A stretch of 64,000 bases of DNA from Ulva prolifera (Eukaryota > Chlorophyta > Ulvophyceae > Ulvales > Ulvaceae), in contig CM041198.1 of NCBI GenBank assembly GCA_023078555.1, positions 2,840,800 through 2,904,799 on the forward strand. The letters run 5' to 3'. Positions 2,492 to 63,769 of the stretch are shown here, piece after piece. Made by a program: the position numbers and the translations under genes. Each line of letters begins with the position of its first letter. Position 1 is the stretch's first letter. Under the pieces are notes generated by a model. It saw nothing but the letters and a program-made list of their open reading frames with translations. It did not search any database and was not told where the DNA came from.

Positions 2492-3027
2492 CGTATCAGC
2501 CTTAGCCACGGCTCGCCAGCTCTGTGTGACTGCCCGAACAGCTCCGGGGCGGCCCCGGGCGGCCCAAAGTACACGAAACGCTTGCTATCCAGCTCGTAGT
2601 ACACGTCCTCGAAGTGGCACGCCCGTGTCACCGTCGTCGTCCCGAGGCACTTCATCACCGTCGTGCGTGGCGACGGTGCGATCGCTGCGGAGGTCCCGTG
2701 CCCTGGCAGCTCGACCGCAGCTTGTAGCGGCTGCACTTGCGACTCCGAAAAGTCGTCGGACTCGGGGACCTTTATTCGCCGCTGCAACAGCTGTTCTGGA
2801 GAAGATTGCGTGCCTGCGTCGGCGTTGACTGCTCGTGAGCTGCGAGTTGGCAGCAGCTGCGACTCGACCGGAGGCTGCCACCTGACACCGAGGTCAACGG
2901 GATCAGAATTTGCCCGCGCGCTCACCGACAAGCTCCTTCCCGTTACCATCAGCGCGCCAGAATTGATCATGATCCCCAGTAACGCTATCAGAACAGGTAT
3001 TCGAATGTCTAGAACCTGGCAGGTCAT
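2492..3027 (-). CDS. Gene A, exon 1: putative GT61-like glycosyltransferase (partial)
   Basis: First exon of a glycosyltransferase paralogue; exons 2-7 must lie beyond the left edge of the window. It starts at an ATG at 3027 followed by a hydrophobic stretch (about residues 10-30, IPVLIALLGIMINSGALMV), consistent with a signal anchor of a Golgi/ER type II membrane protein. A long polar stem follows, then the conserved exon-1 block CLGTTTVTRACHFEDVYYEL, a RFVYFGPPG motif and PWLRLIR. The exon ends in phase 2 at a GTGCG donor (intron from 2491 down), exactly where gene B's exon 1 ends. Its exon-1 block is closer to gene B than to genes C-E. It is divergent from gene B, with a 2.5-kb spacer between the two starts. 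The stem is longer than in other copies. Family assignment is by motif recognition, not a search. Confidence 0.72.
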
Positions 3028-4619
3028 GCTTGAGCCTGAGACCTACACTCGCCCACAGCCCAACGATGACGTCAACCGTCACTGCGATGTCGGTCGGATC
3101 GACTGCTGTGTGCTGCGGAACGGCACGCCTGTTGAGTTCCCGATCAACCCTGTTGGATGAGATGTCTTCAAATGTGGAGAAAACGTTGCACGAACGTGGG
3201 CATCACATGTGCAATCGTCAGAGCTTTTGCAGGCGGAGAAAGAAGCCGAGACAGCTGCATGAGTCGACATGCATGCGTCTCGTGCGGCATATGCAAGGCT
3301 AGAATTGAGCACTCGGTAGAGCGGGCGCTGGAGTCGGGTGGGTGCAAGGTGCGCATGCGTCCAGGGGCGGAATCCGAGTTTGGAACGTGTACATATCGCC
3401 TCAGTGCAGGATGCGTAATGCAGATTGCGCCTATCGCGAGCTTGGCCGCGCTCTCCTAAGCTTGCAGGCTCTCCATGCACGGAGCCGCGGCGCGCAGCTT
3501 GGATTCGGCTCAGGGGACTGCGTTACAGACAAGGGAACGTACACGTTCACGTGTCGATAGACATGCAGCACTAGAGGCTCTCTTGAAACATTAACCACGC
3601 ATAATAGTGGTGTCCACATGTACAGCCACTCCGTAGCACTGCTGCAGCGCCACGCATCGTTCCTCCGAACTTCGTCGTTAGGCCGTGTTCAGTGGGGTGC
3701 GCCTGAAGTAGGGCGCATGGGGCGGACGCGGGCGATGTGACCGGTCACATTGCATGCTGTGTTCAGAAGCAATTTGGTGTCGCACCGGAGGACAGCACCA
3801 CGTACTGCAGAACCTGCTCGGGCACAATGAAAGGCACTCGCGATCGTGCATGCTAGATGTGGTATTTCTTGACAAAAATGATGTTCTGAAGTGCTTCGCG
3901 ATGATGTTCCAGTCAGTCAAAGGTATGTGTCCCCGGTCGCAATGTGTCTCGGCAATGTGTACCCCCCTCGGAGGGGGTCACATACCCGACCGGACAAATT
4001 CGCGGGACACATCACGTATCATCAAATCACTTTTAAACGCCAGCGAATCAGGACAAGTTATCGATGCAGTGAGACTTAAATCATGATCATAAGTGTAGTT
4101 CATGCTTCGTTCAGGCCAACTTTTTTGTTTCGCGACGTCACTCCACTGAACACGGCCTTACAGCGGGCGCGTGCACATGCATGTGTTATTGGAACACATA
4201 CATGCGTACCCATGCATCGTTGTGGTCCTGCGGTCATATCTGCCTGAATCTTTTTTTCTCCCGTTCACTCTTTTGTAACCTCTGCCCGACTTCGTCGCTG
4301 TCACGCAGACCAGACCACCGTGATCGCATGCATGTGTTGTCCACGGCAATACACACTGTACATTCTCCAGACGATTGAGCGGGCTCGAACGCCCACAGCT
4401 CGAGAACCTCTTACGAAGCATATGCATGAAGCTGTGAACTTTCCCCTGACACCCCAACTATGCGCGTCCAAACGTTCGGTGGCCATAGGTCATCGTCTCG
4501 GATGACATATGATGATATCATCTGCATCAGGCTCTGCCCGCCTCCGCCCCTGCACACATGGTACCGGTGGGAGCACTCGCATGCATATCCGTCGGCAGCC
4601 ATCGAACGGCATCTGACGT

Positions 4620-5567: not shown

Positions 5568-7424
5568 ATGCGCATGCATTGCGAAGCACGACGAACGAGA
5601 GCTCGAGTGAGAACTGCAGCAAGGTTAAACGTATGGTATGCCGCCGCCGTATGGATTCACGCTGCGTACTGGGCGGCGTCGACGTTCTCATCCCCAGCTC
5701 TCGCTCGCGGCTTGCGCGCCGACGACGGCTCGCTGTGGGTGGCACCGTGGGACACCCCATGGGCAGCGCAGGCATATGCGCAGCGCGGCCTCGTCGCCGA
5801 CCGCGACGACGGCGCGGATCCGCAGCTCATCGACGAGCCGGGCACGCGGACGGTGATGAGGTGCCTCGGGACGACGATTGTTACACGGGCGTGCCACTTT
5901 GAGGATGTGTACTACGAACTAGAGAGCAAGCGCTTTGTGTACTTTGGGCCGCCGGGAGCTTCTCCGGAGCTGTTCGGAAGGTCACCTGTGGCGGAGGATG
6001 ACGAGCCGTGGCTGAGGCTGATACGGTGCGACTCATATGATTATTGCCTGCGCGGCGCGAGCTCAAGGTGCCTAGCTGTCCTGAGTCAGGACTCCTGCAT
6101 GACGGTGCCACGCCAGACTTGTATGCTAGTAGTACGTGCTCATCGAATGTAGTCGACTGACTTCAAAGCCGTAATGAACATACTACTAGCTAGCGCAGTC
6201 AAACCAATGAGTTCCATCCTTGCAGTACTCGTGGCATTCATGACCGTCAGCCAGCTGGCTGCCGTGCATGCATAGGCAGCGGCACAGCATGGATACTGCT
6301 CTCATGTGGTGCAACTTGAAGTCGGTTCCGAGTTGCCTGTACATTTGAGGCTACGTGATAGATATATATATATATATATCTATCACGTAGCCTCAAATGT
6401 TATATATATAAATTATTTTTACTTTTCATATGTGATGCCGCACGTCCATGTGGTGCCTGGCATCAAACAAGCAGCCACATGCTGCCTGCCTCCTCGGCTT
6501 TGGCCTGCAGGTAACACACAATGGTTATGGTAACATGTTAACACACAATATTATATCAGCTATATATATATATACATCTATATATATAGATGTATATATA
6601 TACAAGCGACGAGCCCCCCTTCGGGGGGCTCTTGCGCTTTGATGCTCGAAGCTGAAGCACGAAGCTCGATGCTGGCGGAGCGCTGCAGCCAACGTGGCCA
6701 GAGGTGCATCGCAGCTGCGGCGCTCTGCTGCTCGATGCGCGGTGCTCGACGCTCGATGCAAGCGATTTCTGTCGCGGTAAATATAATGCATAAGTGACGA
6801 TTAGAGTATGTTTTGTTTTAGCAGCGCTCGAAGCGGCCGCGTCCGTGGCGGAGCGCCGCTGAAAGGCTCGACAGCCAGTACACGTGGCCCGAAGGGGGGC
6901 CCGAAGGGGGGCCTGTCGGTCCTCGACGCTTGAGAAGAGCGATGCTTCATGCACGCTGAAAACAATGCAAATGCTACACATAAGTGCTGTGACGCCTCGG
7001 CTGGCCCCGAAGCGGTCGCATCCGTGGCGGAGCGCTGCAGCCAGCGTGGCCAGAGGTGCAGCGCTCTGCCGCTCGATGCGTCATGCTCGAAGCTCGATGC
7101 GATTCGCTTCTGATGCATTAGATATGAACTACATAATTTAATTAGAATATGTGACGCCTCGGCTGCCCCAGAAGCGGACGCATCCGTGGCGGAGCGCCGC
7201 TGAAAGCAGCGTGGCCAGAGGTGCAGCGCAACTTCGGCGCCCGATACCGCTGCAGAGGAACGACGCGAACGCGAAGCGACCTGCGTCGCGGGGTTTTTGG
7301 ATGCAGATGCACAGACGCGAAGCCGACGCCGAAGCCCCGACGCGGAGGCGAAGCCGGAATGGAGCAGCCGCCGGACAATCGATAGATAGATAGATAGATA
7401 CAGTGATGCTGAATATAATACTTA

Positions 7425-7471
<47 letters not shown>

Positions 7472-10400
7472 AGCCTCAAATATTTTATATATAAATTATT
7501 TTTACTTTTCATATGTGATGCCGCACGTCCATGTGGTGCCTGGCATCAAACAAGCAGCCACATGCTGCCTGCCTCCTCGGCTTTGGCCTGCAGGTAACAC
7601 ACAATGGTTATGGTAACATGTTAACACACAATATTATATCAGCTATGGTAACACACAATATTATATCAGCTATGTGCTGACGTGGGTAGAGTAAAGTAAA
7701 TCTAAACTTACTGAGCCGTATCCTATTGGACATTGACAACTCGAGTTAACCGATGGGTGTGTTGATTGATGACTGCATGGGTGTGAGGTGCCCCTGTGAA
7801 CACAAACGTTTGTGTCCTGTGTGTCCTGCGGTCCTGTGTGTCCTGCGGTGCTACCTATAGCTACCTGCCTCCCCTGGCGTGGTCCTTGTAGCAGAAACAA
7901 CCATGCATATGGGTGGTGTGCCTGTCAGGTTGCAGTCCTGTCTGGGTGCTGTATATGTACTACTATAGTATAGCAGGACTGCAGAGATCTAGAGCTCCAG
8001 TCCAGCTGGCTGTAGTCAGTCGTGCATGCTGCAGTCCTGCCGCACTGCCATTGGCATGCGGCATGCGCCTGTGAACTTTTCAACTTCTAGGGTACATGGA
8101 ACCGGTTGCGCTTTACGGTTGTGGAAACTCTTTTCTCGATGAGCCAATACATTACATATTCTGCACCTGTGAACCTGTGGGCCTTTGCTAGTTGAATGTC
8201 CCAGTTCCAAGCATCAGCTGAAGCTCTCTGCACTGCCGACTGTCCTGTCACTCTCGGCTGATGCCTGCCCGCTGCACTGCCCTGTCATGGGCTGTGTTAC
8301 AAGGACAAAGCAAGCGAGGCAGGTAGCACCGCAAGCAAGAACCAGGGGAACCGCACACCACGCAGCAAGCAAGCCACACGAAGCTCACACCAAAACACCC
8401 ACGCAACGGCAGCACCCTCGCCGGACACAGCCACACAGCCACACAGCCACACACACGCCCACACCCACACGCCCACTCCCAGCCGAACCCCGTCCACCAG
8501 CCAGGCGCACGAAACCCGGAGGCACAAGCAGCCAAGGCCGCCCAGCAAACAAACAGCGAGACCGCAACAAAAAACCCCCCAACCCGGGGAGGCCCCCGCC
8601 TCCCCCAGCACAACCCCCCAAGCCCAGCCCTCGCACACCAACCCGCCCGCCCGCAAACTCACACCCGTAACCCCCAAAGTCCAGCCCAGCCCGCCCAAAC
8701 TACCCGGCTGTGTCCCAACGGCGGGCCACAAGCAGGCGCACGGGGAAGACACAAGAGAAACGCGGCACACCTAAGCCGCCATCACAACAAAGTGGACGAG
8801 GCTGCGAGCGCGCACGCAGCGGCGACTGCCCACCACGCAGCCCGGGCGGGCGCGCACCGCCACTCAGGCCAGGTGGCCCGTGAGCGGCGTGAGGTCATCG
8901 GACGGTCATGGGCTGTGTGTCATAGCTGCAGAGGCAGACAGGTCAGCATGCTGTATACGTACTGTTGCTGACATGTACACTGTAGCACCCGGTCACAGAC
9001 CTCCAGAGGCAGGCCAGCAACACTGCTCAAGTCAATTGTCATGCTGTCCACTGTGTGCTGGTACTTCCGCGAGTCAGAGGCAGGCCAGCAACACTGCTCA
9101 AGTCAATTGTCATGCTGTCCACTGTGGTGTTACAAGGACAAAGGCAGCAAGTCGGGCAGCACCGCGAAAGGAGCAAGCAGACGAAGCAAACACCAAGACA
9201 CCCACGAACACCTCACCCATCACCGGCGCAACAAGCGACACAGATCCGCAGACCGCCAAGCACACACCCACACACCAGCGCACACACGCACAGACCCACA
9301 CACCCACAAGCCCAAACCCACACACGCGCACGCGCACAAACCCCACGGCTGACACACAACAGCACAACCACCAGCACCACAACGCCCGCCGCCGTACGAC
9401 AGGGCCAAACCCAACACACTGCTGCCTGAGGCCGCCCATCATGGCCGCCCGATTGCCGGGGGCCGCCCCGGCCCCAAGACCCACCCCTGTCCACTGTGTG
9501 CTGGTACTTCCGTGTGTGCATGCCATACTGAGTGCAACGTTACAGCAGAGTGATCAGGCATAAACACCTATGTCCAACTATGAAAATTTTCACAGATTAG
9601 CCTCTATCAGCCTGCATGCATGGCTCAGTGTCAAGCAAAGTCAAGCAAATCTGAATTTACTGAGCCGTATCCAATAGGACACATATGCCACATATGCCAC
9701 ATATGCCACATATGCCACATATGCCACATATGCCGCATATGCCACATATGCCACATATGCCGAAGTGTGGTATATGCTATATCAATCCTGGGCACATGCA
9801 ATGGGCACAGGCAATGGCGCGAAAAACAGCTGGCCATGGAGGATAGGTACCAAGCACATCCACCACCAACATCACCCTCAACCACTGGCACCACGACCGC
9901 TTTCTCCTCCATTTGCGCAGGTCACAAAAATGTTTAATTCAAGCACAGATGCAGGTCTCGAGCACACGTGGATGCGGCACTGGAGAGCTCCACTGGCAGG
10001 CAGCCTCATGCATGTCTCTCATGCGCATGCGTAAACAAATGGCACAGCCTCTAGAGCTACAGATAGCTACAGATAAGCCACACACCCCACCAACGCTTTG
10101 CCCTGCCCACCACTGGGCAGGTACCTGTCCATGTTGTCCCCGTCAATGTGCCTGCGCACATCTGTCCAAAGCAGTGTTGGGTCGCTTTGCAGCATTTCCA
10201 GGACTGCCACCCCCAAAATATATCTGAATATTCGGAATTGTTCTATGTGATCGGGCTCGATGACTCAACACTGGTCCAACGATCAGGGCCTCTCTGCCAG
10301 ACCCTGAGACAGTCGACTTTCTTGCTGTGCCGGTAGTGCCAGCAACCACGCAGACGTATGCATGTACGCGCAGGGGGGTTGCGAGGTGGAAGGGCGAGGA

Positions 10401-13400
10401 GAGGGCGACCCAGTTCCACATGGACTGGCGGCCCGGCGAGCCGCTGCCGCCGGCGGAGGCCGTGGTGACTTACACGCAGCCGCTGCAGCTGCGCAGCACG
10501 ATGAACACCCGCAGCCTCGGCCACCTCCTGCGCGACAACATACATCCGCTCGTCGACCTGCCGATTCGTTTTGGGCGCGACCCTGTCGACTTCGACTGGG
10601 TACGCGCCGCAACTGCTCGTAACTGTCACGCTCGTTGCGAGCCTTCCCGGAAGTGCTGAAGTGTGACTGCAAGTCAATTCAGTTATAATTATAACATTAT
10701 AATGCTAATAGGCACTTGGAGCCAGGAGCGCATGCTTATGATTGAGTTATGAATACACATCTAGATCTGATGAGAGGCGAGCGTGGCGTGTCGTGGTGTA
10801 GGTGCGCTGGGAAAGTAATCTAGAAAGGTCCGGCTGGCAAACCGAGACGCCGACGGCGAAGCACTACTGGGGGCTGCTCAACAACCGCCCCTCGGTGACG
10901 TGGCAGCAGGTGCTTGACAAAGCCCTCGCCGGCAAGCGTCAGGGTGTGCTGCTGCCCGCAACATCGATGTCATGCTCTCACGTCCTTGTGGCGCTGTGGA
11001 CGCCTGCCGGTGATGCGCCACCTGAGACTCGGCCCCTAGGGGCCTGCATGTGAAAGAACACAGCTGCTGTGAGTGTCTCCCTCTAGAGTGCTCACAGATT
11101 CATGCAGCCTGTGTTTAACTCCAATAGACAAGATTACAGAGGTACACACTAAGTAGAAGTGTACCTGTGAAAGAACACAGCTGCTGTGAGTGTCTCCCTC
11201 TAGAGTGCTCACAGATTCATGCAGCCTGCATTCAACATGCTGAGTTATACCAACTCAGCAAACTATGTGTCCACAAGCACAAACCAACCACATATCCATG
11301 CATGCCAGCTAGAGGACACCATACCTGTGTTTAACTCCAATAGACAAGATGTCCTACTGGAGTCAACACAAGGCTTATATGCAAACAAGCACACAGACAC
11401 ATAATGTCTACCTATGTGCAAAACAACAAACGCTCCCGCTTTCTGAGTCCCTTTATCTCAGGGATCGCGTCGAGCACGTGTACAGCAACCATGCGTACAA
11501 CCACCTCTTGATATGCTATCTTCTAGCTCCCTCACACAGCAGTCTCCTATTGAGCCATGCTTATGATTCTCCTGAAAACTCCTGGTTTCACCACACTGCA
11601 CCAACACCCCGGGATGGCGGGCCGCCATCGGCAGCTCATCGCGGGCACCGAGATCCTGCTCTGAATTGCAACGAACACAGTGCATGCGTCTGTCACAGAG
11701 CACCTCTACATTCCGCACTTGTGTTTATCGGCCTGCGCCGCGCCGGTGCACTGTGATATATAGCAGCGAGCCGAGGCCATACCAGAGCTGACCTGCCTGC
11801 AACGCTGCATTCCGGGCCATTGTATGGCGCCGGCAAAGCAAACAAACACATCAAGCCAAACAACTGATCAGCTGCCACACAAGCAACCAGCGAAGCTCAC
11901 CTCAGCCAACAACCTGCCTGCAACGCTGCAGGGTCCAGCATGTGTGTGTTGGTCATGCTGGATGTGTTCAACTGACGGCGGGCGCTGTGAGTTTGTGAGC
12001 AGTACGGTGTGTGGGATTGGTGTCTTCGTTTCAGAACTTTTTTTGGCAGATATTCCAAACATGCTGTTCATGCGCTTGTGCCCTCTCCGTAATCACGCAA
12101 CGAAGCCAGCAGCGACCACGCAGCATCATGATCTGGATGAGTGAAGACTCGGACCTCAGCGCATATGCATGCACAGCCATAATGGCATTGACGGCGTTTA
12201 TTGATCAATAACAGTTTGCTGCAGGGGTGAAGTTTATTCGGTTGTCCGAGGTCATTGCTGGCCAGGGCCCGGTCGACCTCGTGTCGCACGTGGGCAAGAT
12301 GTCACTCGAGGCGGACGACCACCAGCTCGCGCAGTGGGCGCACATGTGTGACCCGTTTGCGTTTTCTGCGATGCGGGAGGTTGCCTACCGCAACCACGGC
12401 CTCAAGGTACGCCCCCCCGCCCACGCATCACCACCGCACCGTGTTTCAAAGGGATGTGACATCCCTTTGAAACAAGTTGAAGCGGCAATGGAGCGGAGGT
12501 CGCAGGAGGCAGCCACCTCAGCTGCGCATATGGGTTTCAAATTCACCTTGCGTCAATGAATTGGCGCAGTGAGACGTGATCTCACAATTGAGCCTGCGAG
12601 CTAGGGGGATGTTTTCGTTTAGTTGTGCACGGAGCACATGCTGCGTTGTGATGTTGCCTGAGCTGGGAGGGGCTGCCGATTCGGCGCCAGCAGGCCAATT
12701 CCGCAGATTCCTGCCTCTCTTTCCGGGGGCTTGAATGCCGTACCCCAGATGTATGCACCGTTTCCCAGTTGACATCTCCATCGTTGACACCATGCGGTGC
12801 GTACCGTTGGTGACCCCACACCGCCAGCAAAGATCTAGATCTCGATCCTCGCCAATGAGGCTACCACTGACATACTGCAAAGCTAGGGCTGGGTCGAACT
12901 GTAATGGTCAATGCAGTGGTGGGACACATGCATGAGTGCCAGTGTGGCTGCAGGTGGCGTCTGTGACAGAGCTGGAGCCGTTTGTGCTGTTTCTCGATGG
13001 CCAGCCGCTCGAGAAGCGCCACCTGCCCAACGCTGACAAGATCCTCCCCACCCTCAAGAAAACCTTCCCAGGTACTGCGCGATATCTCTAGAGATTGCAC
13101 TACAAGCATATGTGAGTTGGCCTCACGGAAGCTGGGATGTCGCTGGCAACTGTCTGTGAAGTCACAGTTTGCACATTTGATGTGTATGCGCTAGTGGGGA
13201 CGAGATTGCGAGCAAGGTCCACCGTCCGGGCCTGGCATGCGCATGCCCAGATCAAATTACATACTACGCAGGGTTTACCACCCATCCTACTCTGGGTAGC
13301 CATCAATTGGCTGGCAGACCAGCCGCTTCCAGACCTAGTGCTCAGCGTCGGCGCTGTAAGCAGTGCTGTATCGTGGCATCCCCGGACGCGCCTCATGCAT

Positions 13401-14137
13401 GCCATGTATGCATGCAGGGGTGCGCATGGAGCACGTCCTGATCTCGAAGCAGCCACTCGCGCAGCAGCTGAAGCTGCTGTCGCAGGCGACGGTGGTTGTG
13501 TCCAATATTGGCAGCCGGAGCTTCCGCCTCATCTACCTGCCGAACGGCGCCACCACCATCCTCGTCGGGCCCCCCGAGTGCGCCCCCCGGGCCACCCTCA
13601 ATTCTCCTCTGCACAGCTGATCAGCATAGGCACAGCTCTCGCCAGGCCTGGGTGTTAAGGACTGTACTCCCACACAGGGAACCATTTCGAAACTCGGCCG
13701 TGTGCATGTAGCACTTCAACCCGTTTGCAGCTGAGATCACAGATACGATATCGGCTGAAAGTCAGTCGGCTGAAAGTCAGTCAATGCAACACAAATGTTA
13801 ACTCAGCAGATGTATACCACCACTGCCACGCAGGTACCAATTCACCGTGCCGCCGAAAAAGGCCGGGGGGAAGCCCTCCCAAGAGAGGGTGCCGATACCT
13901 TTCCAGGAGATCGACTCTTGCTGGGCATACATCGGGTACGTGCAAATGCTGCAGTACCACGTGGAAAGTGAGGCGGAGGTGCAGCGCAAACGCCCCTGGC
14001 GCGCCTGGCGCGACGCCCGCGACACCGACATTCTGCTGGACGTGGCCAAGCTCACCACGCTGCTGCGGGTCGCGCTCGAGCGGGGCGGCAGCGGCGCATT
14101 CGCCGGTTCCAGCACGCTTTCTGCGCTCAACGCGTGA
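5568..14137 (+). CDS. Gene B: putative GT61-like glycosyltransferase, complete, 7 exons
   Basis: Exons 5568-6025, 10374-10599, 10802-10943, 12225-12406, 12954-13071, 13418-13577, 13834-14137; 1,590 nt, 529 aa plus stop. All six introns are GT-AG. The protein has an Arg-rich N-terminus then a hydrophobic segment (about 21-46), suggesting a type II Golgi/ER anchor. Blocks in order: CLGTTIVTRACHFEDVYYEL (from Cys99), FHMDWRPGEPL, a GHLLRDNIHPLVDLPIRFGR block resembling the N-x-x-H...D core of GT61, AHMCDPF, FVLFLDGQPLEKRHLPNADK, and VVVSNIGSRSFRLIYLPNGA near residues 400-420, which resembles the GT61 C-terminal hG-x-gltN segment. Last block ECxxYIGYxxML. Likely transfers a sugar to protein or glycan in the secretory pathway; donor and acceptor are unknown. 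Convergent with gene C. Differs from C-F in using a GT donor for intron 5. Confidence 0.8.
6341..6400. repeat. 60-bp perfect palindrome with (TA)n centre
   Basis: ACATTTGAGGCTACGTGATA at 6341-6360 is the exact reverse complement of 6381-6400, and the 20-base GATATA...TATATC centre is itself palindromic. The whole 60 bases can form a perfect hairpin. The right arm (ACGTAGCCTCAAAT) is the start of the direct repeat that recurs at 7467. Confidence 0.95.
6381..7680. repeat. Direct repeats (~200 bp) flanking a GC-rich tandem array
   Basis: A sequence starting ATCACGTAGCCTCAAAT and ending ACACACAATATTATATCAGC occurs at about 6381-6560 and again at 7467-7672. Between them are 3-4 diverged units of about 160 bp sharing CATCCGTGGCGGAGCGC and GTGGCCAGAGGTGCA (near 6675, 6845, 7020, 7180), ending in poorly conserved AT-rich links. 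It could be a satellite-like array trapped between two AT-rich repeats or a miniature element with terminal direct repeats; no coding capacity or primer-binding site is evident. Confidence 0.7.
7687..7742. repeat. GAGCCGTATCC dispersed repeat, one of seven copies
   Basis: Core AGTAAATCTRAATTTACTGAG (an imperfect palindrome) followed by CCGTATCCTATTGGACAT and TTGACAACTC. Other copies: about 9648-9680, 20441-20491, 34168-34219, and in reverse at about 24617-24675, 42421-42478 and 53425-53472. Copies are about 55 bp. No target duplication could be identified, so the mechanism is open. Confidence 0.75.
8298..8904 (-). mobile_element. Retroposon family A, 607-bp copy with 14-bp target duplication
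   Basis: Flanked by GTCATGGGCTGTGT at 8284-8297 and 8905-8918. On its minus-strand sense it ends GGTGCTACCTGCCTC...TTTGTCCTTGTAACA-like, the 3' end shared by all family A copies; copies differ in length at the opposite (5') end, as expected for target-primed reverse transcription with 5' truncation. It is GC-rich and G/T-rich on the sense strand with no convincing ORF. This is the longest copy in the window. Confidence 0.8.
9004..9126. repeat. 71-bp tandem duplication hosting a retroposon
   Basis: CAGAGGCAGGCCAGCAACAC...CTGTCCACTGTG begins at 9004 and again at 9075. The second unit is interrupted by the family A insertion at 9127-9486 and resumes at 9499 (TGCTGGTACTTCCG), so the first unit is an internal empty site for that insertion. 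Confidence 0.85.
9127..9486 (-). mobile_element. Retroposon family A, 360-bp copy with 12-bp target duplication
   Basis: Flanked by CTGTCCACTGTG at 9115-9126 and 9487-9498; the uninterrupted target is preserved in the neighbouring tandem unit at 9004-9074. About 270 bp from the left (3') end are nearly identical to the copy at 57860-58129, suggesting recent activity. It contains CA-rich simple sequence. Confidence 0.82.
9679..9763. repeat. 9-bp minisatellite (CACATATGC)n
   Basis: About nine tandem copies of a 9-base unit containing the palindrome CATATG, with one G variant unit. The multiple-of-three period gives an open frame (His-Ile-Cys repeats), but this is a by-product of the repeat. 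It directly abuts a copy of the GAGCCGTATCC dispersed repeat. Confidence 0.95.
10172..10273. mobile_element. hAT-like MITE, copy 1 (102 bp)
   Basis: Terminal inverted repeats CAGTGTTGGGT...(A)CTCAACACTG, flanked by an imperfect 8-bp duplication GTCCAAAG / GTCCAACG (10164-10171, 10274-10281). Internal sequence (GATCACATAGAACAATTCCGAATAT on the minus strand) matches the copies at 24980-25096 and 46925-47026. CAGNGTTGGG termini and 8-bp target duplications are typical of hAT-derived elements. It sits about 100 bp before gene B exon 2. Confidence 0.85.
11051..11235. repeat. Local duplications in gene B intron 3
   Basis: GTGAAAGAACACAGCTGCTG through CACAGATTCATGCAGCCTG occurs at about 11051-11110 and 11167-11227, and TGTTTAACTCCAATAGACAAG occurs at about 11111 and 11331. 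These are partial tandem duplications within intron 3 (10944-12224), which otherwise shows nothing I can annotate. Confidence 0.8.
12443..12473. repeat. 31-bp perfect hairpin in gene B intron 4
   Basis: GTTTCAAAGGGATGT, one central base, then its exact reverse complement. It lies 37 bases after the exon 4 donor (GTACGCCCCCCC), so it would fold next to the 5' splice site in the transcript. Confidence 0.9.
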
Positions 14138-23213: not shown

Positions 23214-24299
23214 AGAATCGACTCTGTCTAATTTACAGTCTGCTGCGGCAAGTGAGGCTTTAGATTGCTGCGTCCTCGTGCTGTTGTGGTTCACGCTACG
23301 CTGGCCATCACAATCGCGACAGGGAGCATGCACACAGCTAGAGCTTGTGATGGCTGCAGGCCGACATTGCAAGCCATGTGCAAGAACTGAAGACAAGAGA
23401 TGTGGGGCGATGGAAATTGTTTAGGTACCAAAGGCATTCTGGATGTGCGTAGCTGGAGACATCTCGCACCGTGGCCACTAGGCAGCTCACTACCCGCGGC
23501 TGTGTGCACGGTCGACATGCCACGTCATGATGTGTGCTGCGAAATGACCACGAGGGGCCCCGCGGGGCCCATGCCCAGTCGGATTGCTAAACTTGGGCAG
23601 AGTACACTGTACACCGACCATGCATATGACGAAACCGCTTTCGGCGGCGCCGGTTTACGCCTTTTGCAAATGCCCTCAGCTGAGCTCAGGTAGCTGTGAG
23701 GCTCTCGTGAAGCTACGGTACAACATGCATGTCGGTTGACTACCGGGCGTGAGCAGTCCGCCACATGTACAGCCGCCGCCGCTACTTCAAATGTATCGAT
23801 GTACGTATACTTGCAACATGAGCCATCGAAATCGCGCTGCAGCATGCGGGGACCCGCGGATTACAATGATTGATATCAATATATATTGCTTACGCAGTTG
23901 ATCAGTTTTGCGTTCGTGAACGATCCCTCATGGCTTGCAAGGCTGTGCGGCCGAGTGAGCGTGAAGCTGCTTCGCGAGCGATGTCGACGTCGCGACGCGC
24001 GCCATGTCATGTCATGGGTCATAGTGCACCGCCGTGCCCGCGTTGTGTTCGTTTGAGCCCGTGTCACTCTTTTGCACTGTGCAATCTCTCTGGTTTCCAA
24101 TCTAGACAAGCTTGTCCTTGGGGCCCACAAATCCCAATGTGCATTCCCACTTGCAATGTACATGCATGTACAGCTGTCGCGTTCGGAGCTGGTCAGCTTT
24201 GCAGTAGCGATCGCAGTTGGCCTGCGCAGGCCATGATGCACCAGTTGCACAATGTGTACACGTTTCCCCCTCTGTCCTTGTAACCACTTCTTGTAACCA

Positions 24300-25648: not shown

Positions 25649-25680
<32 letters not shown>
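25649..25680. repeat. Homopolymer G32
   Basis: Uninterrupted G run in the intergenic spacer upstream of gene C, unlike most other runs here, which lie in introns. Confidence 0.9.
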
Positions 25681-52800: not shown

Positions 52801-55215
52801 GGAGAGTCTTTGTCAGCACTCTTGAGGGCCTGCTCGAGCACCTGCTCCCATGTGACTGAGGGCCGGCCGTTGAGCAGCCCCCGGTAGTGCTCCGCCGTCG
52901 GCGACTCCTCGTCCGCCTTTGCCCACTCATCGTTTGCATGCCACCGTACCTGCACGTGCGTTGGACTGGCGAGCCGCGCTCTCAGGCCGAGGTGATGCGT
53001 TTACTTTGGTTGTTGTTGTTGCAAAAGTCGATTGCAGTTGTTGCAAAAGTCGATTGCACATATTTGGGCCCAGGCTGGCTGACCACCTGGTCGCCGCCCT
53101 TTCACCCCCAAGCCATACGTGACACAATTATCCACACCTGATGCTTTTGGTTGTGTGGAGCAATCAGTATGTGGGAGTGGGTGCAGGGAGCGCACCCCCA
53201 TGCATGCATGGCGGAGGGCTCGGGAGGCTGCACCGGAGTGGCTAGAGGGGTGTGAACTTCATACAATATTGTCCTGCGGACGGCAGCAGTGCTGCTGTGG
53301 ATGTGATTGTGCCGCAGACTGCACTCTTACGCAGTGCTTGCGCGCCGTGCTGCTTGTCTCTCCGACTCTGTCCGTGTGCATGCCCACACATCGGCATATG
53401 TGGTCCCGTTCACTTGGAGTTGCCAATGTCCAATAGGATACGGCTCAGTAAATTCAGATTTACTTTGCTTTACACAAGCAGTGCTTACGTGAATCACCGC
53501 GACATATGACATACTGCAGTTCTTTGCTCCCGTAAACGTTGTACAGGCCGTGATCAGCTGGCATGGGCCCAAAACCTCTGGAAGATCCTGGATCCTGGCC
53601 CAGCGCGTGGGCGCTGGGTGTGATCCGGTGTGGGCCAACAAAGCAGCACGGCCATGCTGCACAGGCGCAGCTGCTCAGGGTGAATCGGCCGACACCTCTT
53701 TTGAGAAGAATTCTTTTTAAAAAAAGAAGAAAAAGAAGAAAAATATTCTGAAAAAAATCAATGATGCATTGTGCACATGCATGTGGAGGGAGATCGAAGG
53801 CGCACCCAGTCAAAGTCGACGGGGTCGCGGCCGAAGCGCAGCGGCAGGTCAACCAGGAACTGCAGGTTGTCGCGGATGAGGTGGCCGATGCTTTTGGTGT
53901 TGAAGGGCGTCCGCAAGGTGAGCGGCTGTGTGTACACAACCACGTCCTCCGCCGCCGGCAGCGGCTCGCCAGGCCGCCAGTCCATGTGGAACTGATTCTC
54001 GGCCTCGCTCTCACCCTTCCGCCAATTGGAAATGCCCCCAACTTCCGGATCGACCCTGCCTCAGAGTTGCAGCGTTTGGTATCTGCCATGAAACGTCGAC
54101 ACATGTACAGTTGAATTCGGGCTGCTGAGGCACCTAGGAATTACACGAGCAATAAGGACAGAGAAGTAGAGACAGGATCGCCGATTGCATGCTAATGGCC
54201 GATACAGACGTGACCGTATGATAGCCTCGGAGAATTTTTGTACAACACTGGTAGTACTCGTCTAAAGACCACCGCAGCCCCGAGATGCAGCGGGGTCTAG
54301 GGCGCAGACCCGAGGTGCTTGGGGGTTCGGGCGCCTCGAGGTGGCTAGGTACAATACGGACGTGCCTCGTGCTTGTGGCCGATCTCACGTTTGTGGTCGA
54401 CATGTGCAGCGTATGCAATGGCAAACTTGCAGATCACATGCATGCATACCCGTCACAGGACTGTCAGTGCATATGCATTCCCGATGATGTTCCTGCCTGG
54501 CGCTACCACAGCATCATGATGCTCGCTGCCACGAATCATTGTGCTGATCCTGGGATTGACGAAATACTTGCTGACCAGAATGAAATCTCACTTCAATGTG
54601 GAGCTCTGTGGTGTGGCCGTGTGAGCGTGGCTGTTGCTTCTTTCCTTTTGCTGTGTACACAATCCTGTCTATTCCAGTTCACGCCTCTATCATCGTTACT
54701 TCAAAGCGGAACATAAATGGCCGGAACGTGGATGGCCGGGATGCACACATCGATGCAGCGGTGGACGTCCACGGTGCGTACGGACAGCACGTCCGCGTCC
54801 ACGCGTGCGCACAGTACGTCCGTACGGACAGCACGAAGCCTTCAGTACAGCATCTTTAAGAGTTGTCTTGCTCACGGGGCAAAGCGCACCGCGTCATGCG
54901 CAACCACGGGTCTTCTGGCTTGTAGTCGTCTCCAAAGATATCCGGCGTTGCCCCGTCGATCCCGTAATGGACGAACCGCGAGCTGCTCAGGTCATAGTAC
55001 ACGTTCTCGAAATGACACGCCCGAGTCAGTGTCTGTGTGCCTAGGCACTGCATCACTGTTCGCTGAGATCCTGCTTCTGGTTGCGGTTTATCTTCCTGTA
55101 GATCGCTCGGTGCTGCATCATCTTGAACGCTTACTCTGAGGCTGCGTCCTGACGCCACTGACGCTGCGTGGCTACCGCTCAATAGCCACAACAGCAGTGG
55201 CGTAAAAGCGAACAT
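49838..55215 (-). CDS. Gene E: putative GT61-like glycosyltransferase, complete, 7 exons
   Basis: Exons in transcript order: 55215-54890, 54055-53806, 52949-52799, 52299-52118, 51552-51435, 50753-50594, 50174-49838; 1,524 nt, 507 aa plus stop. The start MFAFTPLLLWLLSGSHAAS matches the position in genes C and D; an upstream in-frame ATG at 55347 would add 44 residues and a longer hydrophobic anchor, and cannot be excluded. Family blocks: CLGTQTLTRACHFENVYYDL, GHLIRDNLQFLVDLPLRFGR, AHMCDPFPFTAMRKVAYRN, FVLFIDGQPDERRHLANA, VLVSNIGSRSFRLIYLPNGA. Exon 2 begins six codons earlier than in B-D: the usual acceptor is lost and the upstream CAG at 54056 keeps phase 2, adding VDPEVG. Exons 4-7 are close to gene D; exons 1-3 are more diverged. 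Intron 5 has a GC donor. Intron 1 is only 0.8 kb. Confidence 0.8.
51955..52027. repeat. Inverted copy of gene E's exon-2 acceptor region
   Basis: About 65 bases (ATTCAACTGTGCATGTGTCG ... CTCTGAGGCAGGGTCG) closely match the reverse complement of 54053-54117, the end of intron 1 with the new exon 2 acceptor. This copy lies in intron 4 in the opposite orientation. Gene D intron 4 lacks it at the matching place (about 32730). Confidence 0.85.
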
Positions 55216-56547
55216 GGCAATTATAGCAAACTTTCTGATGTACTGAGGCACTCGAGGCTCTGGCTGGTGTGGCTTCGGCTCAGGCGTGTGGACAGAGGAG
55301 TTTCGGACACAGGCACAGGCGGAGCTACAAGCCCTGCTGCAGGACATCGATGTAGACGCGAATGCGATGTGTCAACGCAGCTGTGCAGGTGTCTCTGGCT
55401 ATTATGCTGTCTCCCAGCCGCAGGGACGGTCATCCGTGCTATGCGCGCGGCTGCAGAATTGCAACGTCCGCGGCAAGGCGACACCATGCTGCAGGCAAGC
55501 GCGTCATGATTAATAGGACTGACGTCCTGAGCAGCTCCGCTGTGGCGCCGTGCAGAGGAAACTTGAGCCGCTTGCACGCAACTACGTCGATGTCTGCGCA
55601 GCAGGGGCCAACGTTGCAGCTGTGAAGCACGCAGTGCAGCCGCGCTGCATGCGGATTATGCACCAGATACGTATTCCTAGCGTATGCTCAACACCGGGGG
55701 GGGGACATAGTCAGCGCGGCGGACCGCGGCGGACCGTGCATATCGGCATGCACACAACCCACTCGCCACGACCACACAGTGTATGCTGTTCTGCGGCAGG
55801 TGCCGGCTGCGAGGTGGCTTGATTGTGCACTGCTCTGTGCGATTGCTGCGCTATCACTGCCTCGCTCCGACTTTGTCTTTGTAACGCCGCGTATCTCGAG
55901 ATACGATGTTGTGTCAGCGCTGCTTTCGCACAATATCCGCGTCTTTGTGGTTGTTCCGCTGCGATGGCTGTGGCGTTTGGAAACTTTCATATCAGAATGC
56001 AGCAGCCGTGACATATGCAGCTTGGATTCATGAGTGCTAAGTGGATCGCAATCTGGAACCACTAATCGGCGATTGTCCCTCGACTTCATACGTACGTATA
56101 CAGGTTAACTTATTCGCGCTGGGCGGAGCCTCTGGCTTTTCCATGGCCTTGATGATATTGTGAGAGTTATTATGAGCTTCATGAACCCAGAGGCAGTGCA
56201 GCTTGTAAGCAGTGACTGGAATGTACAGAAATTGACCAGCCAAGGAATTCTGTTTGCCTGTGACAGTGATTGTAAACACAGTGAAGGACACCCAAGGCAT
56301 TTGCAGCCAAAGCGTTGGTTCAATGGCAGACCATTTCACAGGGAAAATTATGCCTGGGGAGTTGGACAACGAATGCTTCGGCTACTCACGAACATGGGGT
56401 ACTTGCACATGACCACTGCATGTCTACTGTTAAGGTCATTGGGTGTCACCTGATTTCCACGGAAACAAGTTAATGATGCCACTCATGCTGGAGCATATCT
56501 AAGAAGAATCTGAGTGTCTGATGATCTTCTAGAATACAGCGCATACT

Positions 56548-59187: not shown

Positions 59188-62100
59188 TCACGCGGAGTAC
59201 GCCGAGAGCTCCCCGCCGCCGCGCTGCGCTGTGCTGTGCTGTGCCCGCTCGAGCGCGATGCGCAGCAGCGCCGTGAGCTTGTCTTCCCGCAGCACGACGT
59301 CCGTGTTGCGCGCGAACATCGGCTTCGTCCACGGCTGCCCCGGCCGCCGGCGGACCTCGGCCTCGCTCTCAACGCGGTAGCGCAGCATGTTGACGTACCC
59401 GATGTACCCCCAGCACCAGTCGATCTCGAGGAAGGGGCGCTGGATCGTGTACGGCGACTCGAATTCGTCCTTCTTGCTCTGTTCCTGTGATTCTTTCTCC
59501 TTTGGGGGCAATGGTTCCAGCTCAAACGCGTATCTGCATGCGCGGCGGAGCGGTCAGCATGGTCCGGCTCGAGATTGAAGTGGTGTGAGGCCACAAACTG
59601 ATGGCCCTGTCTGCGCCAAATTTCCCATACGTGGCGCAGTAAGGATGAATCATACAGCCTTCACAGGGCTAGTTTGAGGCTCTACGGAACCACCCTGAGG
59701 GAGTATGGAGGGGGGACTGGAGGGCGCACTCGGGGGGCCCGACGAGGATGGTCGTGGCGCCGTTGGGCAGGTAGATGAGGCGGAAGCTGCGGCTGCCGAT
59801 GTTCGACACGAGCACCGTCGCCTTGGACAGCAGTTGCAGCTGCTTCTCGAGGGGATGCGCCGAGATTTCCACGTGCTCCATACGCACACCTGCATGCATG
59901 GGCCGCATGCATTAGAACTCAGTCACGGTCAGGCCTGCGATGCAGCACACAGCACAGCACAGCAGGCTTGTACAGGTTGAAGCTGCAGCCGTCTGCAGAT
60001 GGCGCCGACTGGGCATGTGTCAAGTCACAACATTGCAGGCTGGGTCGACGTTGTGCTGATTGGACGGACAGTAGCGGCGTTGAGTCGCCGGGCACGAGCA
60101 CACAGGCAAAGCCCGGTGTGATAGGTACGGCTTCAAGGCACCATGGCCACTGGCGCCAGGCCTGCATGGCAGTGGCTGTGGGGCGTGCCTGGGAAGGTCG
60201 CCTTCAGTCTCGGCAGCAGCTCACCCGCATTCGCGAGGTGGCGCTTCTCTCTTTTCTTGCCATCCAGGAACAGCACAAACGGCTCCAGGTCGTGAACTGA
60301 CGCCGCCTGCAGCCGCATGCATGCATGCCTTTACACGCAGGTGAAGTGTGTGAGCTGCAGCACAGCCGCCGGCGCTCAGAGTCATGCACAGCTTGACAGT
60401 TCGCCAGCATGAGGCCCATTTGTGCTTTTGTGTCTAAAAAATCTGTACATGATGCAGCCATTGGCCAACCATGGGCTGCTCCAAGTACAACGAGTGGGCT
60501 GCTCCAAGTACAACGTGCATACACCAAACAGCAAGCCAACCATGTCTCTAAAACGTGCACGCCAGGACTTGAGTCTAAAGTTTCATGGGTGTCAGCGAAA
60601 CGTTTGTTGAAACTGCTAACCAGGGGTGGCTCGACGGCCGAGCACCCCGTGCCTTCTGTTATGTCTGGGGGAGTCCCCACTGATAATATCGACACAGTGA
60701 TGCAGGTTTTCTCGAATCACTACCTATCTGAAATGAACCCGGTCCCACATGCCACATTCTGCGAGCAAACTGATGCTGAGCACATGTCTGAGACACATTG
60801 CACGCATGGCGCCAAACTGAGCCTGAACACAACCAAGAGATGGATGATGCCTTCACACTTCACGAACTTCAACAAGCACTTGCTACAATACACAACTGGA
60901 AAGCCGCAGACCACGATGATATCATCTGCGAACTACTGAAGGCCGGGGGGCCGCAATTGCAAACCGTCGTCCTGCAGCTCCTCAATTTCAGCTGGACGCA
61001 CGAAACCATTCCCAATGCATGGTCACTCGGAACAATTGTAAGCCTCCACAAAGCCGGGGATGCAACAGACCCCTCCAACTACCGGGGTATCACACTGCTT
61101 TCAATATTCCGGAAGCTTTTTAGCACACTACTCAGGTCCCGCCTCCAAAACAATATAACCCTCCATGAGTCTCAAGCCGCATTCCGCGAGGATCGCGGCT
61201 GTGTAGACCATGTCCACACCTTTGCACGCATTGTCCGGGCGGCTGCCGCGGCGGACACTCCACTTTATCCTTTCTTCCTGGACATCCGGAAAGCATACGA
61301 TACTGTGTGGCGCGACGGTCTGTTGTACAAACTGCTCCAGAAAGGAGTGACAGGCCGCCTCGGTCGGGTCATCGCACACATGCTCTCAAACACGAAATCA
61401 AGGGTGCGCTTCCAAGACCAGGAATCACCATACTTCCCCATCACCCTCGGGGTCGGCCAAGGCGACCCCCTGTCAACCATTCTCTTTGATGTGTTCATTG
61501 ATGATCTGCTTGAAACACTGCACACCCGTCCAAAAGAACTCTGCATTCCCCTTGACTCACCAGACACCGATAAAATTTCCGGACTCACTTATGCAGATGA
61601 TGTCAATGCAATGTCCTTGACACCGGCAGGGCTCCAGGGACATATTGTTACAATCGATAAATGGTTGTTTCAATGGCGCTCCTTCCTGCTGGCTGTACGC
61701 CAGCGCTGTTTGCTGCAACGGCTTTGACGGTCATGCGACGATGGGCTGCGTGGTTGATGACTAGCTGCTTCCTTGTGAAGCTGGATGCCTGTGTTTTTTC
61801 TAATTGTGCAGACGCTTTTGAAGTTTCTCATGTGCAGTGCACTTGCCCGTAGTGGGCGTGCACTGACCTGGTGAATGAGTGGATTTGCGTGTGAGTTCCT
61901 AGCAATGGCTCGGTGCCCGGCCTCTGTCCTTTGTAACTACATACGAGTACGAGCCTAGTGCCATGACTGCGTGAGTGGATTTGCGTGTGTATTCCTGGCA
62001 ACGGCTCGCTGCCTGGCCTCTGTCCTTTGTAACTACATACGAGTACTGCTAGGCGGCTATACACACCAAGGCATGCGTCCTGGAATTTTGGCCGAGCAAA

Positions 62101-63769
62101 TGCGAAGAAATCAAATGTGCTGCTGACAGCTAGGAGAATAATTTTTTTTTGTGGAGTCCAAATTGAATGCGACCGGGAAAATGTGTGCGCCACAGCCATT
62201 CAAATGAACTCATATATACGCACACAGCGGCAGCCGTACCTCGAGTCCGTGGTTGCGGTAAGCAACCCGCCGCATCTCGGAGAACGGAAACGGGTCGCAC
62301 ATATGCGCCCACGCGGCAACCTTGGCTGAAGTGACGTCCGCCCACAGCGTCCCCAGCTGACTCAGCACGTCCGCCGGCCCCTGCCCCGCGATTAGCTCGG
62401 CAAAGCGGATGTACTGGACACCTGCACAGCCCAGGCCGTCGGCGATCACTCCACGCCGGTGCTTGACAGGATGCATATGGTGCTCGCTCCAGGCCGTCGC
62501 GTGTCTGTGCGATTCAGTCTTCGAACAAGCACATGGACACACGATCGCATGCAGCACCATCTTGTTTTCCCCCGCAAAACATAGTACCGGACTGAATTAA
62601 CAGCATGGACATGTAACGCGTATCGCAGGATTTTCTATGCACTCAGCGAGGTATACTTGATCACGATGTTTCGGGGCGACAGACCCAACAGAGATTAGAA
62701 GTTTTGGACCTAGACCCCATGTAACGCTGGCCTAGATGCCCCTGCTTTCAATTGAGTACGGTCCTCAAAATTAAAACGCAAATTTGCGTTTGCTTAATTT
62801 GCTTAAGGTGCCCGAGTTGCCCTACATTCAGTCTCAGGCCGAGGAGATGATAGATATGTGCAGCAATGAGGTTACTGCTCCAGCAATCACTCGGCCGACC
62901 AGTTTGCGAGCGGGGGCACTCTCTCAAGGGCGAGACGGGCAGGTAACACACCCACGCATGCACAGTGCCAATGGACTACATGTAGTGCCGGCCCTCCGTC
63001 CCATTGTGTGGGCACTCCGTCCCGGAAAATGCAAGCAGCTGCAGAGCGGGGCAAAACTCACAGCGCGCACCCGACCACACGCGGTAGGCACGGCATGCCT
63101 GACCGCTCCATCCTGTCCCGCTGTGTGACAAGCTCTGCCAGTTCCAGCGGTATACACTGCGAGGGGGATGGTCAGCCGCCACACAGCACAGGGAAACACT
63201 CACACCATCCACTAGGGCACCACCAGCCGGACAGGGCTGCGCACGCTACCGTTCGGTACTGAGCTCATCTTGTGATGGTCCCCCCGTCTCCGCCTGGCGA
63301 CGCTGTCGTCCGCGCAGATATCCGCATAAACACCATAAATCGATCTAGGGTGACTAGGCGGCACGATGTTTCGGCCCAGCCGTCAGCAGCACCCACCGCC
63401 CGCATATCGAGACATATGCAAGTACCTCCGCGACGGAATGGGCGCATGAATTACACGGATTACGCGTCCCCGCCCGTCCCAAAACATCCGGTCTCGGCTT
63501 TGCCGCAGAATCAAGCGGTTGCAATCCATTGCACTCGAGCACGGAGTGTGCACCATGCTGGATGCCGATTACATAATTACACGAATACAGTCAACGGGAT
63601 CACATGATGGGATCGGGAGCGCACTGGACCTGTCAGCCCCAGAGAGGGCTCTATTAAGCACCTGCTTCCAGGTCAAGGAGGGGCGGTTGTTGAGCAGCCC
63701 CCGGTAGTGCTCCGCCGTCGGCGTCTCCTCCTCCCAGTCTGAGAAGGCCAGCTTGGACTCCCACCTCAC
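59188..63769 (-). CDS. Gene F: putative GT61-like glycosyltransferase, exons 3-7 (5' part off window)
   Basis: Exons in transcript order: 63769-63625, 62421-62240, 60306-60189, 59889-59730, 59533-59188. Exon 3 starts VRWESKLAFSDWEEETPTAE at a CAG acceptor; exons 1-2 must lie beyond 64000. Blocks: AHMCDPFPFSEMRRVAYRN, FVLFLDGKKREKRHLANA, VLVSNIGSRSFRLIYLPNGA, FLEIDWCWGYIGYVNMLRYR, ending LSAYSA-stop. Phases match the other copies; exon 7 has a Lys/Glu-rich linker (KEKESQEQSKKDEFE) longer than in C-E. Intron 5 has a GC donor (CCCAG|GCACGC), and exon 7 follows CAG|A rather than CAG|G. Intron 4 is enlarged to 1.9 kb by an antisense LINE. Exon 3 resembles gene B (WES-K/N-L). Confidence 0.8.
60409..61727 (+). 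pseudogene. LINE reverse transcriptase (frameshifted, truncated)
   Basis: A first frame (60409-60939) has the pre-RT region with GGVPTDNIDTVMQVFSNHYL. A second frame (60798-61727) carries the RT: FTLHELQQALATIHNWKAAD, an NYRGITLLSIFRKLFSTLL block, QAAFREDRGCVDHV, FFLDIRKAYDTVWRDGL, VGQGDPLSTILFDVFIDDLL, and the catalytic LTYADDVNAM. The shift between frames lies at about 60790-60850. The thumb and C-terminal domains are missing. RT signature is that of a LINE (GITLL, RKAYDTV, GQGDPLS), not of an LTR element. It is not functional as it stands. Confidence 0.9.
60409..61950 (+). mobile_element. Non-LTR (LINE-type) retrotransposon fragment, antisense in gene F intron 4
   Basis: Carries RT coding sequence in two frames and ends with a tail CTCTGTCCTTTGT before AACTACATACGAGTAC. 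It is truncated: no endonuclease domain is visible upstream, and RT motifs after YADD give way quickly to a short frame and 3' UTR. Introns 4 of genes D and E are about 0.55 kb and lack it, so it inserted in gene F's lineage. The 5' boundary is approximate. Confidence 0.85.
61951..62030 (+). mobile_element. 80-bp LINE-tail copy with 16-bp target duplication
   Basis: Flanked by AACTACATACGAGTAC at 61935-61950 and 62031-62046. It contains GAGTGGATTTGCGTGTG...CTCTGTCCTTTGT, nearly the same as the LINE's own 3' end at 61877-61934. A very short, 5'-truncated copy inserted directly behind the longer one. Confidence 0.9.

What the first reader, a model, noticed from the sequence alone, without database searches (positions are those of the whole stretch)
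2492..63769. Six-copy cluster of a seven-exon GT61-like glycosyltransferase family
Each copy shows the same ordered blocks, exon phases (2,0,1,0,1,2) and mostly the same exon lengths (exons 4, 5 and 6 are 182, 118 and 160 nt in all five copies where visible). Such a local array of secretory glycosyltransferases is unusual for an alga and suggests lineage-specific diversification of a surface or wall glycan. Family identity comes from motif resemblance to GT61/DUF563 (C-x-R-x-C-x-F-x-N/D-V-Y-Y, N...D...RFG-x-DP, SNIGSRSFRLIYLPNGA).
Basis: partly seen in the sequence, partly recalled or inferred. Interest (0 to 1): 0.8.

Follow-up and report, generated by a model that had tools for sequence, protein, structure and literature searches.

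The report
Nineteen-gene algal glycosyltransferase-61-like family
A green alga carries nineteen copies of a gene that looks like one for a secreted sugar-transferring enzyme, six of them close together here and one a visible fusion of two neighbours, and all share an unusual change in the pocket that in known relatives holds the sugar donor.

Summary
Six copies lie in the window; B-E are complete there, and the flanks complete A and F. All six have seven exons, phases 2,0,1,0,1,2, and exons 4/5/6 of 182/118/160 nt. Own-genome searches found 19 such genes at seven places on four contigs, none with a stop in the exons read. All 19 spliced proteins match Pfam Glyco_transf_61; the nearest solved protein is POMGNT2. 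So the GT61 reading is right. (1) Gene D is a chimera, C-like through exon 4 and E-like from exon 5 on, introns and flanks included, as unequal crossing-over between C and E would leave it. (2) The N-R-R triad that binds UDP in known GT61 enzymes is changed: Asn is Ser in 19 of 19, and the first Arg is absent at both published spacings in 13 of 19. The second Arg and the proposed catalytic His stay in 19 of 19; the HGA loop became IGSR. Best reading: a lineage-expanded set of secretory GT-B transferases with a remodelled donor pocket. Fold, activity, donor and product are untested.

The parts
2492..3027 (-). gene A exon 1 (hydrophobic N-terminus; C-x-G-x(4)-T-R-A-C-H-F-x(2)-V-Y-Y block); exons 2-7 lie left of the window at C3:2839613-2836802
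5568..14137 (+). gene B, seven exons, 529 aa; the only copy of the window on the + strand
   Evidence: Pfam PF04577 36.2 bits
17505..23213 (-). gene C, seven exons, 491 aa
   Evidence: Pfam PF04577 39.7 bits
30622..37438 (-). gene D, seven exons, 491 aa; exons 1-4 C-like (95.6-99.5% nt), exons 5-7 E-like (94.3-97.5% nt)
32883..32974 (-). most likely crossover interval in D: after the last C-like diagnostic site of exon 4 (exon position 96) and by the end of the C-like alignment; this end of exon 4 is identical in C and E
49838..55347 (-). gene E, seven exons, 551 aa
59188..63769 (-). gene F exons 3-7; exons 1-2 lie right of the window at C3:2908089-2905065
23400..30283 (.). D-C spacer with gene ends; 17 of 18 similar blocks lie in the same order in the E-D spacer 37641-49500
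42498..46468 (+). copia-type retrotransposon frames (gag/integrase part and RVT_2 part) in the E-D spacer, at a point where the D-C spacer has only about 117 unmatched nt
60792..61727 (+). reverse transcriptase frame (RVT_1) inside intron 4 of gene F, opposite strand

Best explanation
The six genes belong to a family of at least 19 genes for secretory-pathway glycosyltransferases of the GT61 (Pfam Glyco_transf_61) superfamily in an alga with a green plastid. Shown: the gene models are conserved, the exons read are open, all copies match the GT61 profile, the 14 copies tested are under purifying selection, and D fits an unequal crossing-over product of C and E. Inferred: each protein enters the ER by its hydrophobic N-terminus and folds as a GT-B enzyme like POMGNT2 and EOGT. 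The invariant His of S-x-G-H would act as base and the invariant second Arg would hold the donor's phosphates. The family's Ser and IGSRSFR loop would replace the usual Asn and HGA loop, so donor handling is remodelled. Most likely the family builds variable side chains on wall or surface glycans.
For: 19 of 19 spliced proteins match PF04577 at E <= 4e-6, over the 27-bit cut-off, and no other Pfam family matches at the thresholds (4e-6 and 0.001). POMGNT2 is the best solved match of each of three profiles (E 0.0031, 1.8e-4, 0.011); with A1 and A2 the N-terminal C-x-G-x(n)-R-x-C-x-F block and the C-terminal core come in the same order, though the N-terminal block alone scores only 3.4-4.8 bits. 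Profile-profile match of the C8 copies to six bacterial GT61 proteins: prob 80, E 1.4e-5. His three after the triad's Asn place in 19 of 19, second Arg in 19 of 19. 136 of 494 columns invariant over 19 copies. Pairwise dN/dS 0.19-0.50 over 91 pairs of 14 copies. Hydrophobic N-termini in 12 of 12 exon-1 frames examined. Chimera.
Against: [quoted passage not shown] Profile-profile support for A2 is weak (prob 51, E 1.5e-4). No fold was predicted. No transcript, assay or glycan data. The other frames of the window that I scanned (3, 9) are retrotransposon parts or without a family, so nothing beside the genes points to a glycan pathway.
Confidence: 0.62

Rival explanations
1. The family is a set of pseudo-glycosyltransferases: GT61-fold proteins that lost donor binding and now bind glycans or proteins, for instance as surface recognition proteins.
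For: Ser for Asn in 19 of 19, first Arg absent at both published spacings in 13 of 19; HGA, present in 6 of 6 bacterial GT61 proteins compared, is IGS here. That expansion with a chimeric gene resembles recognition families is inference.
Against: His and second Arg kept in 19 of 19, and IGSRSFR in 19 of 19: such constancy in the GT61 core fits a working site better than a free scaffold.
Confidence: 0.2
2. The genes are ordinary UDP-sugar transferases of the plant type, for example core beta-1,2-xylosyltransferases of N-glycans, present in many redundant copies.
For: GT61 xylosyltransferases are widespread in microalgae (PMC12507850, passages). The genome also holds another GT61-profile gene at C5:2130159.
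Against: The donor triad differs from N-R-R, which PMC13123520 reports for plant GT61 enzymes. No plant GT61 sequence was in hand, so kinship to XylT was not tested. Nineteen copies would be many for one core N-glycan step (inference).
Confidence: 0.15
3. The array is an assembly artefact or a set of decaying pseudogenes.
For: C9d and C9e are 99.2% identical in protein and about 88 kb apart; D resembles two neighbours.
Against: No internal stop in the exons read of 19 copies; dN/dS 0.19-0.50 for 14 copies; in the long blocks that hold introns D differs from C or E by about 6-14%, too much for one locus assembled twice.
Confidence: 0.03

Closest known systems
POMGNT2, animal protein O-mannose beta-1,4-GlcNAc transferase (GT61; PDB 6xi2, 7e9j)
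   Same: Best solved match; same order of the N-terminal Cys/Arg/Cys/Phe block and C-terminal core; His base and second Arg kept
   Different: N163 place is Ser in 19 of 19; no Arg at the R294 spacing in 17 of 19; SMHGAQ of POMGNT2 is SNIGSR here. Its extra fibronectin-type domain (recalled) is not seen: Pfam found only GT61 in ours at the thresholds
EOGT, ER O-GlcNAc transferase (GT61)
   Same: Pfam GT61 and a hydrophobic N-terminus; four C8-contig copies carry an Arg at the EOGT spacing (5 before the second Arg)
   Different: Asn place is Ser; the C-termini read end in L-[SA]-A plus 2-15 residues, with no HDEL
Plant core beta-1,2-xylosyltransferase and xylan-modifying GT61 enzymes
   Same: Same Pfam family; host with a green plastid
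   Different: These carry N-R-R according to PMC13123520; not compared residue by residue here
Chlorophyte GT61 proteins with a Y-R-R triad (Chlorella sorokiniana, Chloropicon primus; PMC13123520, section 11)
   Same: Green algal GT61 with a changed Asn place
   Different: Tyr there, Ser here; two Arg there, mostly one here; their sequences were not in hand
Bacterial GT61 proteins (L049-L054)
   Same: Core from the Arg region to the C-terminal Tyr aligns
   Different: Two Arg and HGA kept in 6 of 6; at the Asn/His place 3 of 6 have N-x-x-H and 3 have G-Y-[YF]-D

Membership tests
GT61 superfamily (Pfam PF04577 Glyco_transf_61) | Profile match above the curated cut-off of 27 bits | tested here: met
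   19 of 19: 12 of 12 in A2, 6 of 6 in A4, one shared with A2, C9c 30.9 and C9e 46.5 bits. For most members only E <= 4e-6 is shown, which is over 27 bits by scaling from B (36.2 bits, 8.4e-9)
GT61 superfamily (Pfam PF04577 Glyco_transf_61) | Sequence kinship to a GT61 enzyme of solved structure | tested here: met
   POMGNT2 chains are the best hits of three profiles: E 0.0031 (A1), 1.8e-4 (A2), 0.011 (A4). Weak, but the same protein each time
[quoted passage not shown]
Catalytically active N-R-R type GT61 (EOGT, POMGNT2, plant XylT/XAT) | Asn of the N-R-R triad (POMGNT2 N163, EOGT N245), three residues before the His | tested here: not met
   Ser in 19 of 19; six before the His stands Asn in 14 and His in 5
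Catalytically active N-R-R type GT61 (EOGT, POMGNT2, plant XylT/XAT) | First Arg (POMGNT2 R294, EOGT R372) | tested here: not met
   Arg at the EOGT spacing in 4 of 19, at the POMGNT2 spacing in 2 of 19, at neither in 13 of 19. Met in those 6 at most; the alignment of this loop is ambiguous
Catalytically active N-R-R type GT61 (EOGT, POMGNT2, plant XylT/XAT) | Second Arg (POMGNT2 R298, EOGT R377) | tested here: met
   19 of 19, aligned to POMGNT2 by HMMER; the number 298 is inferred from the R-x(3)-R spacing
Catalytically active N-R-R type GT61 (EOGT, POMGNT2, plant XylT/XAT) | Proposed catalytic His (POMGNT2 H166, EOGT H248) | tested here: met
   19 of 19; placed by motif and by where the Pfam match begins, not by an alignment to POMGNT2
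Catalytically active N-R-R type GT61 (EOGT, POMGNT2, plant XylT/XAT) | Transfer of a sugar from a UDP-sugar | not testable with these tools
   needs an enzyme assay

The most novel reading that the evidence does not exclude
This is a separate GT61 subfamily, S-(Q/K/R)-R instead of N-R-R, in which a Ser and the Arg-rich IGSRSFR loop took over nucleotide binding. It would use a donor other than the usual UDP-GlcNAc or UDP-pentose, and its paralogues, one reshuffled by unequal crossing-over, would build a combinatorial set of surface or wall glycans peculiar to this algal lineage.
Probability: 0.25. Interest if true: 0.72.

Novelty: new variant of a known kind. Interest (0 to 1): 0.5.

Why it matters
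PMC13123520 proposes N-R-R as a possible mark of active GT61 enzymes and lists F/Y-R-R and G-R-R as the other subtypes (passages and sections 10-11). A 19-gene family, under purifying selection where tested, that lacks the Asn in every copy and the first Arg in most is a natural test of that rule. It also gives a ready set of paralogues, one a natural chimera, to map which half of the protein sets donor or acceptor choice. For algal biology it is a block of candidate genes for wall or surface glycans.

Tried and rejected
Searches for relatives outside this genome found none: viral contigs twice and genome contigs twice, each by a few back-translated peptide patterns only, so distant relatives could be missed; plasmids by tblastn gave one chance-level hit, E 5. 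NCBIfam: no match for 5 of 5. The Pfam search at E <= 10 also gave one stray match (Big_12, E 0.046, 1 of 12 members). Searching the genome with the Pfam profile, frame by frame, found none of the 19 copies and one other GT61 gene on C5 (1 match of 17 candidates), probably because introns split the domain. A lead that C8x reads open through introns 2 and 3 (from the 530-aa frame) was dropped: both introns hold stops in frame. The best solved match of the alga's LHCII-type protein is a multi-domain LHCI protein (9vfj), where two stretches add up; it was not used to place the organism. Genome size (88.9 Mb) and window GC (mean 55.7%) resemble Ulva (80.8-98.5 Mb, 57% GC; PMC9266709, passages): a guess only. 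Nine further frames of the gaps, out of the 140 stop-to-stop frames, had no Pfam match over cut-off. No direct repeat over 40 nt that could be an LTR was found in 40000-48500. Literature searches on this subject listed no report of this expansion; the listings were cut at 8-15 rows where more papers matched, and a green-algal matrix review (PMC10762512) has no mention of GT61.
Full report
WHAT WAS CHECKED. The finding claims six copies of a seven-exon, GT61-like gene. I aligned the repeated blocks of the window, set exon borders where an acceptor AG and a donor GT or GC are shared, and joined them. Genes B, C, D and E are complete in the window. A shows exon 1, F shows exons 3-7. Phases are 2,0,1,0,1,2 and exons 4, 5 and 6 are 182, 118 and 160 nt in 5 of 5 copies that show them. 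The two coordinates given in the finding (2492 and 63769) are exactly the ends of A exon 1 and F exon 3.

THE FLANKS. The window is C3:2840800-2904799 of a genome of 88.9 Mb in 44 contigs. Stretches of 10 kb on both sides complete A (exons 2-7) and F (exons 1-2), so all six copies have seven exons. The array spans at least C3:2836802-2908089.

THE WHOLE FAMILY. Two searches of the own genome with spliced proteins gave 83 matches at E <= 1 (79 of 131 candidates scored) and 111 at E <= 0.001 (108 of 111 candidates scored). By my reading of the two lists they belong to 19 genes at seven places on four contigs: A-F; one at C3:3570418-3575489; one at C5:6108782-6114272; three at C9:264948-287321; one at C9:2429765-2434519; one at C9:2518334 onward, whose exon 1 may be a match at C9:2531817; six at C8:5291775-5352845. 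I spliced 14 and five more with a script that scores alignment to known exons and favours canonical splice sites, so it leans towards the known pattern. Internal stops: 0 of 19. Exon 1 was in the stretches held for 13 of 19 (A-F, C3b, C5, C9a-d, C8a). Exon 5 is 118 nt and exon 6 is 160 nt in 19 of 19. Exon 4 is 182 nt in 13 of 19, 179 in 5 and 173 in 1 (the last six are the C8 copies). One copy (C8x) has exons 4 and 5 fused. The tool calls such counts lower bounds.

SELECTION. Nei-Gojobori dN/dS for all 91 pairs of the first 14 copies lies between 0.19 and 0.50. The five later C8 copies were not included. Over 19 copies 136 of 494 columns are invariant where at least 13 rows are filled.

FAMILY IDENTITY. 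All 19 proteins match Pfam PF04577 at E <= 4e-6 (12 of 12; 6 of 6, one of them shared; two more). Scores shown are 36.2 (B), 39.7 (C), 50.8 (C8a), 30.9 (C9c), 46.5 (C9e) and 39.8 bits (A) against a cut-off of 27. In B and C9c the match covers only the later part of the profile (positions 30-135 and 29-135 of 137). Against solved structures the best hit of each of three profiles is POMGNT2 (E 0.0031, 1.8e-4, 0.011). Profile-profile comparison with six bacterial GT61 proteins from plasmids (L049-L054) gives prob 51, E 1.5e-4 for A2 and prob 80, E 1.4e-5 for the C8 copies. These profiles are shallow.

THE DONOR POCKET. PMC13123520 (outline and abstract, 12 passages, sections 10 and 11) describes the N-R-R constellation: POMGNT2 N163, R294, R298; EOGT N245, R372, R377; with H166 of POMGNT2 proposed as catalytic and H248 of EOGT in its place. 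HMMER aligns our invariant Arg of E-[KR]-R to POMGNT2 R298 (the number is inferred from the R-x(3)-R spacing). In all 19 the residue three before the His of S-x-G-H is Ser. Five before the second Arg (the EOGT spacing) stands Q in 12, K in 3 and R in 4 of 19. Four before it (the POMGNT2 spacing) stands R in 2 of 19 (C9d, C9e). So an Arg at a published spacing is found in 6 of 19 and not in 13. Depending on the alignment the first Arg may instead face a Gly six before, invariant in the 14 copies. The HGA motif, present in 6 of 6 bacterial proteins, is IGS in ours, within IGSRSFR in 19 of 19. The place of the His rests on the motif and on where the Pfam match begins, not on an alignment to POMGNT2. 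The paper names F/Y-R-R and G-R-R as the other subtypes; Ser is not among them in what I read.

SECRETION. The 12 exon-1 frames examined (C8a was spliced later and not examined) begin with a hydrophobic stretch: best 17-residue mean hydropathy 0.95 to 2.38 from the outermost Met, or in C9d shared by its three outer Met. B (0.95) and C3b (1.03) are the weakest. No signal-peptide predictor was available.

THE CHIMERA. Exon by exon D matches C at 99.5, 95.7, 95.9 and 95.6% in exons 1-4 and E at 95.8, 97.5 and 94.3% in exons 5-7; the other parent gives 74.5-91.8% and 77.6-86.9%. Introns follow: from upstream of the gene through intron 3 D aligns to C (85.8-90.7% in blocks over 200 nt), and from exon 4 through the 3' flank to E (88.9-96.5% in blocks over 500 nt), while C and E share only exon-sized blocks. 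Fifteen sites in exon 4 separate C from E; D follows C at 10, E at 3 and neither at 2, and the three E-like ones lie between C-like ones, so the exchange was not perfectly clean or later conversion touched it. Of 18 similar blocks of the D-C and E-D spacers 17 lie in the same order; the odd one is a dispersed repeat, and each spacer also has long unmatched stretches. Reading 5' to 3' along the minus strand the order is E, D (C front, E rear), C, which is the product expected when C on one chromatid crosses with E on the other. Gene conversion over several kilobases is not excluded. The copia frames 42498-46468 sit in the E-D spacer where the D-C spacer lacks them, so they probably came in after the crossover, or were lost from the other spacer.

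HISTORY. The 19-protein tree is unrooted. The C8 set and the C9 set are each one side of a supported branch (100/99 and 98/97). A and B group with C8 (100/100), C with C5 (96/93), D with E (98/98), F with C9 (91/86, not starred); C3b stands apart. So the window cluster is the only place with members near the C8, C5 and C9 lineages and may be their source. D, a chimera, blurs its own placement.

ORGANISM. The genome holds 38 matches to the chlorophyll a/b-binding family, and the best frame is most like chlorophyll a/b proteins of plants and green algae, so the host has a green plastid. The species is not known to me.

KNOWN OR NEW. GT61 enzymes are known in algae: PMC12507850 (passages) reports them as widely distributed, while PMC3797821 (passages) found no orthologue of the plant GT61 xylosyltransferase in the green and red algal genomes it surveyed in 2013. 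The eight literature searches on this subject listed no paper describing this family; most subscription journals are absent from the library. I file it as a divergent subgroup of the GT61 superfamily, not as an N-R-R-type GT61 enzyme.

On re-reading the calls I changed the number of places from six to seven, the collinear blocks from 18 to 17 of 18, the crossover interval and a few ranges.

Noticed in passing
window 42498-46468: Copia-type retrotransposon with two long open frames (813 and 525 aa stop-to-stop; Pol_BBD, SH3, RVT_2) that overlap in different frames; no flanking direct repeat over 40 nt found
   Followed up: partly
window 60792-61727: RVT_1 reverse transcriptase frame within intron 4 of gene F, on the opposite strand
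   Followed up: partly
end of exon 5, e.g. window 18873, 32218, 51435, 60189: The intron after exon 5 starts with GC, not GT, in 10 of 19 copies, and many other donors read GTGCG
   Followed up: no
G000 C9:2429765-2434519 and C9:2518334-2522259: Two copies 99.2% identical in protein and about 88 kb apart; the second copy's exon 1 may lie some 10 kb upstream (match at C9:2531817)
   Followed up: partly
G000 C5:2130159: A further GT61-profile gene with the core R-A-N-R-R-I-I-N-E; a hand-joined piece of it has POMGNT2 as best solved match, E 4.1e-8
   Followed up: partly
G000 C9:2003973-2019037 and C1:5343137-5347846: Tandem 5S rRNA genes with about 404-nt and about 1149-nt spacing (47 of 3890 candidates scored)
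   Followed up: no
window 19525-19564, 33225-33257, 31359-31395: Runs of G (C on the coding strand) of 33-40 nt about 10 nt after the donors of C exon 3, D exon 3 and D exon 6
   Followed up: no
window 4621-4701, 22685-22765, 24306-24377, 36767-36847, 38713-38793: Dispersed repeat of about 72-81 nt in both orientations
   Followed up: no
window 9127-9345 and 57856-58074: A 219-nt repeat, 93% identical, 48.7 kb apart
   Followed up: no
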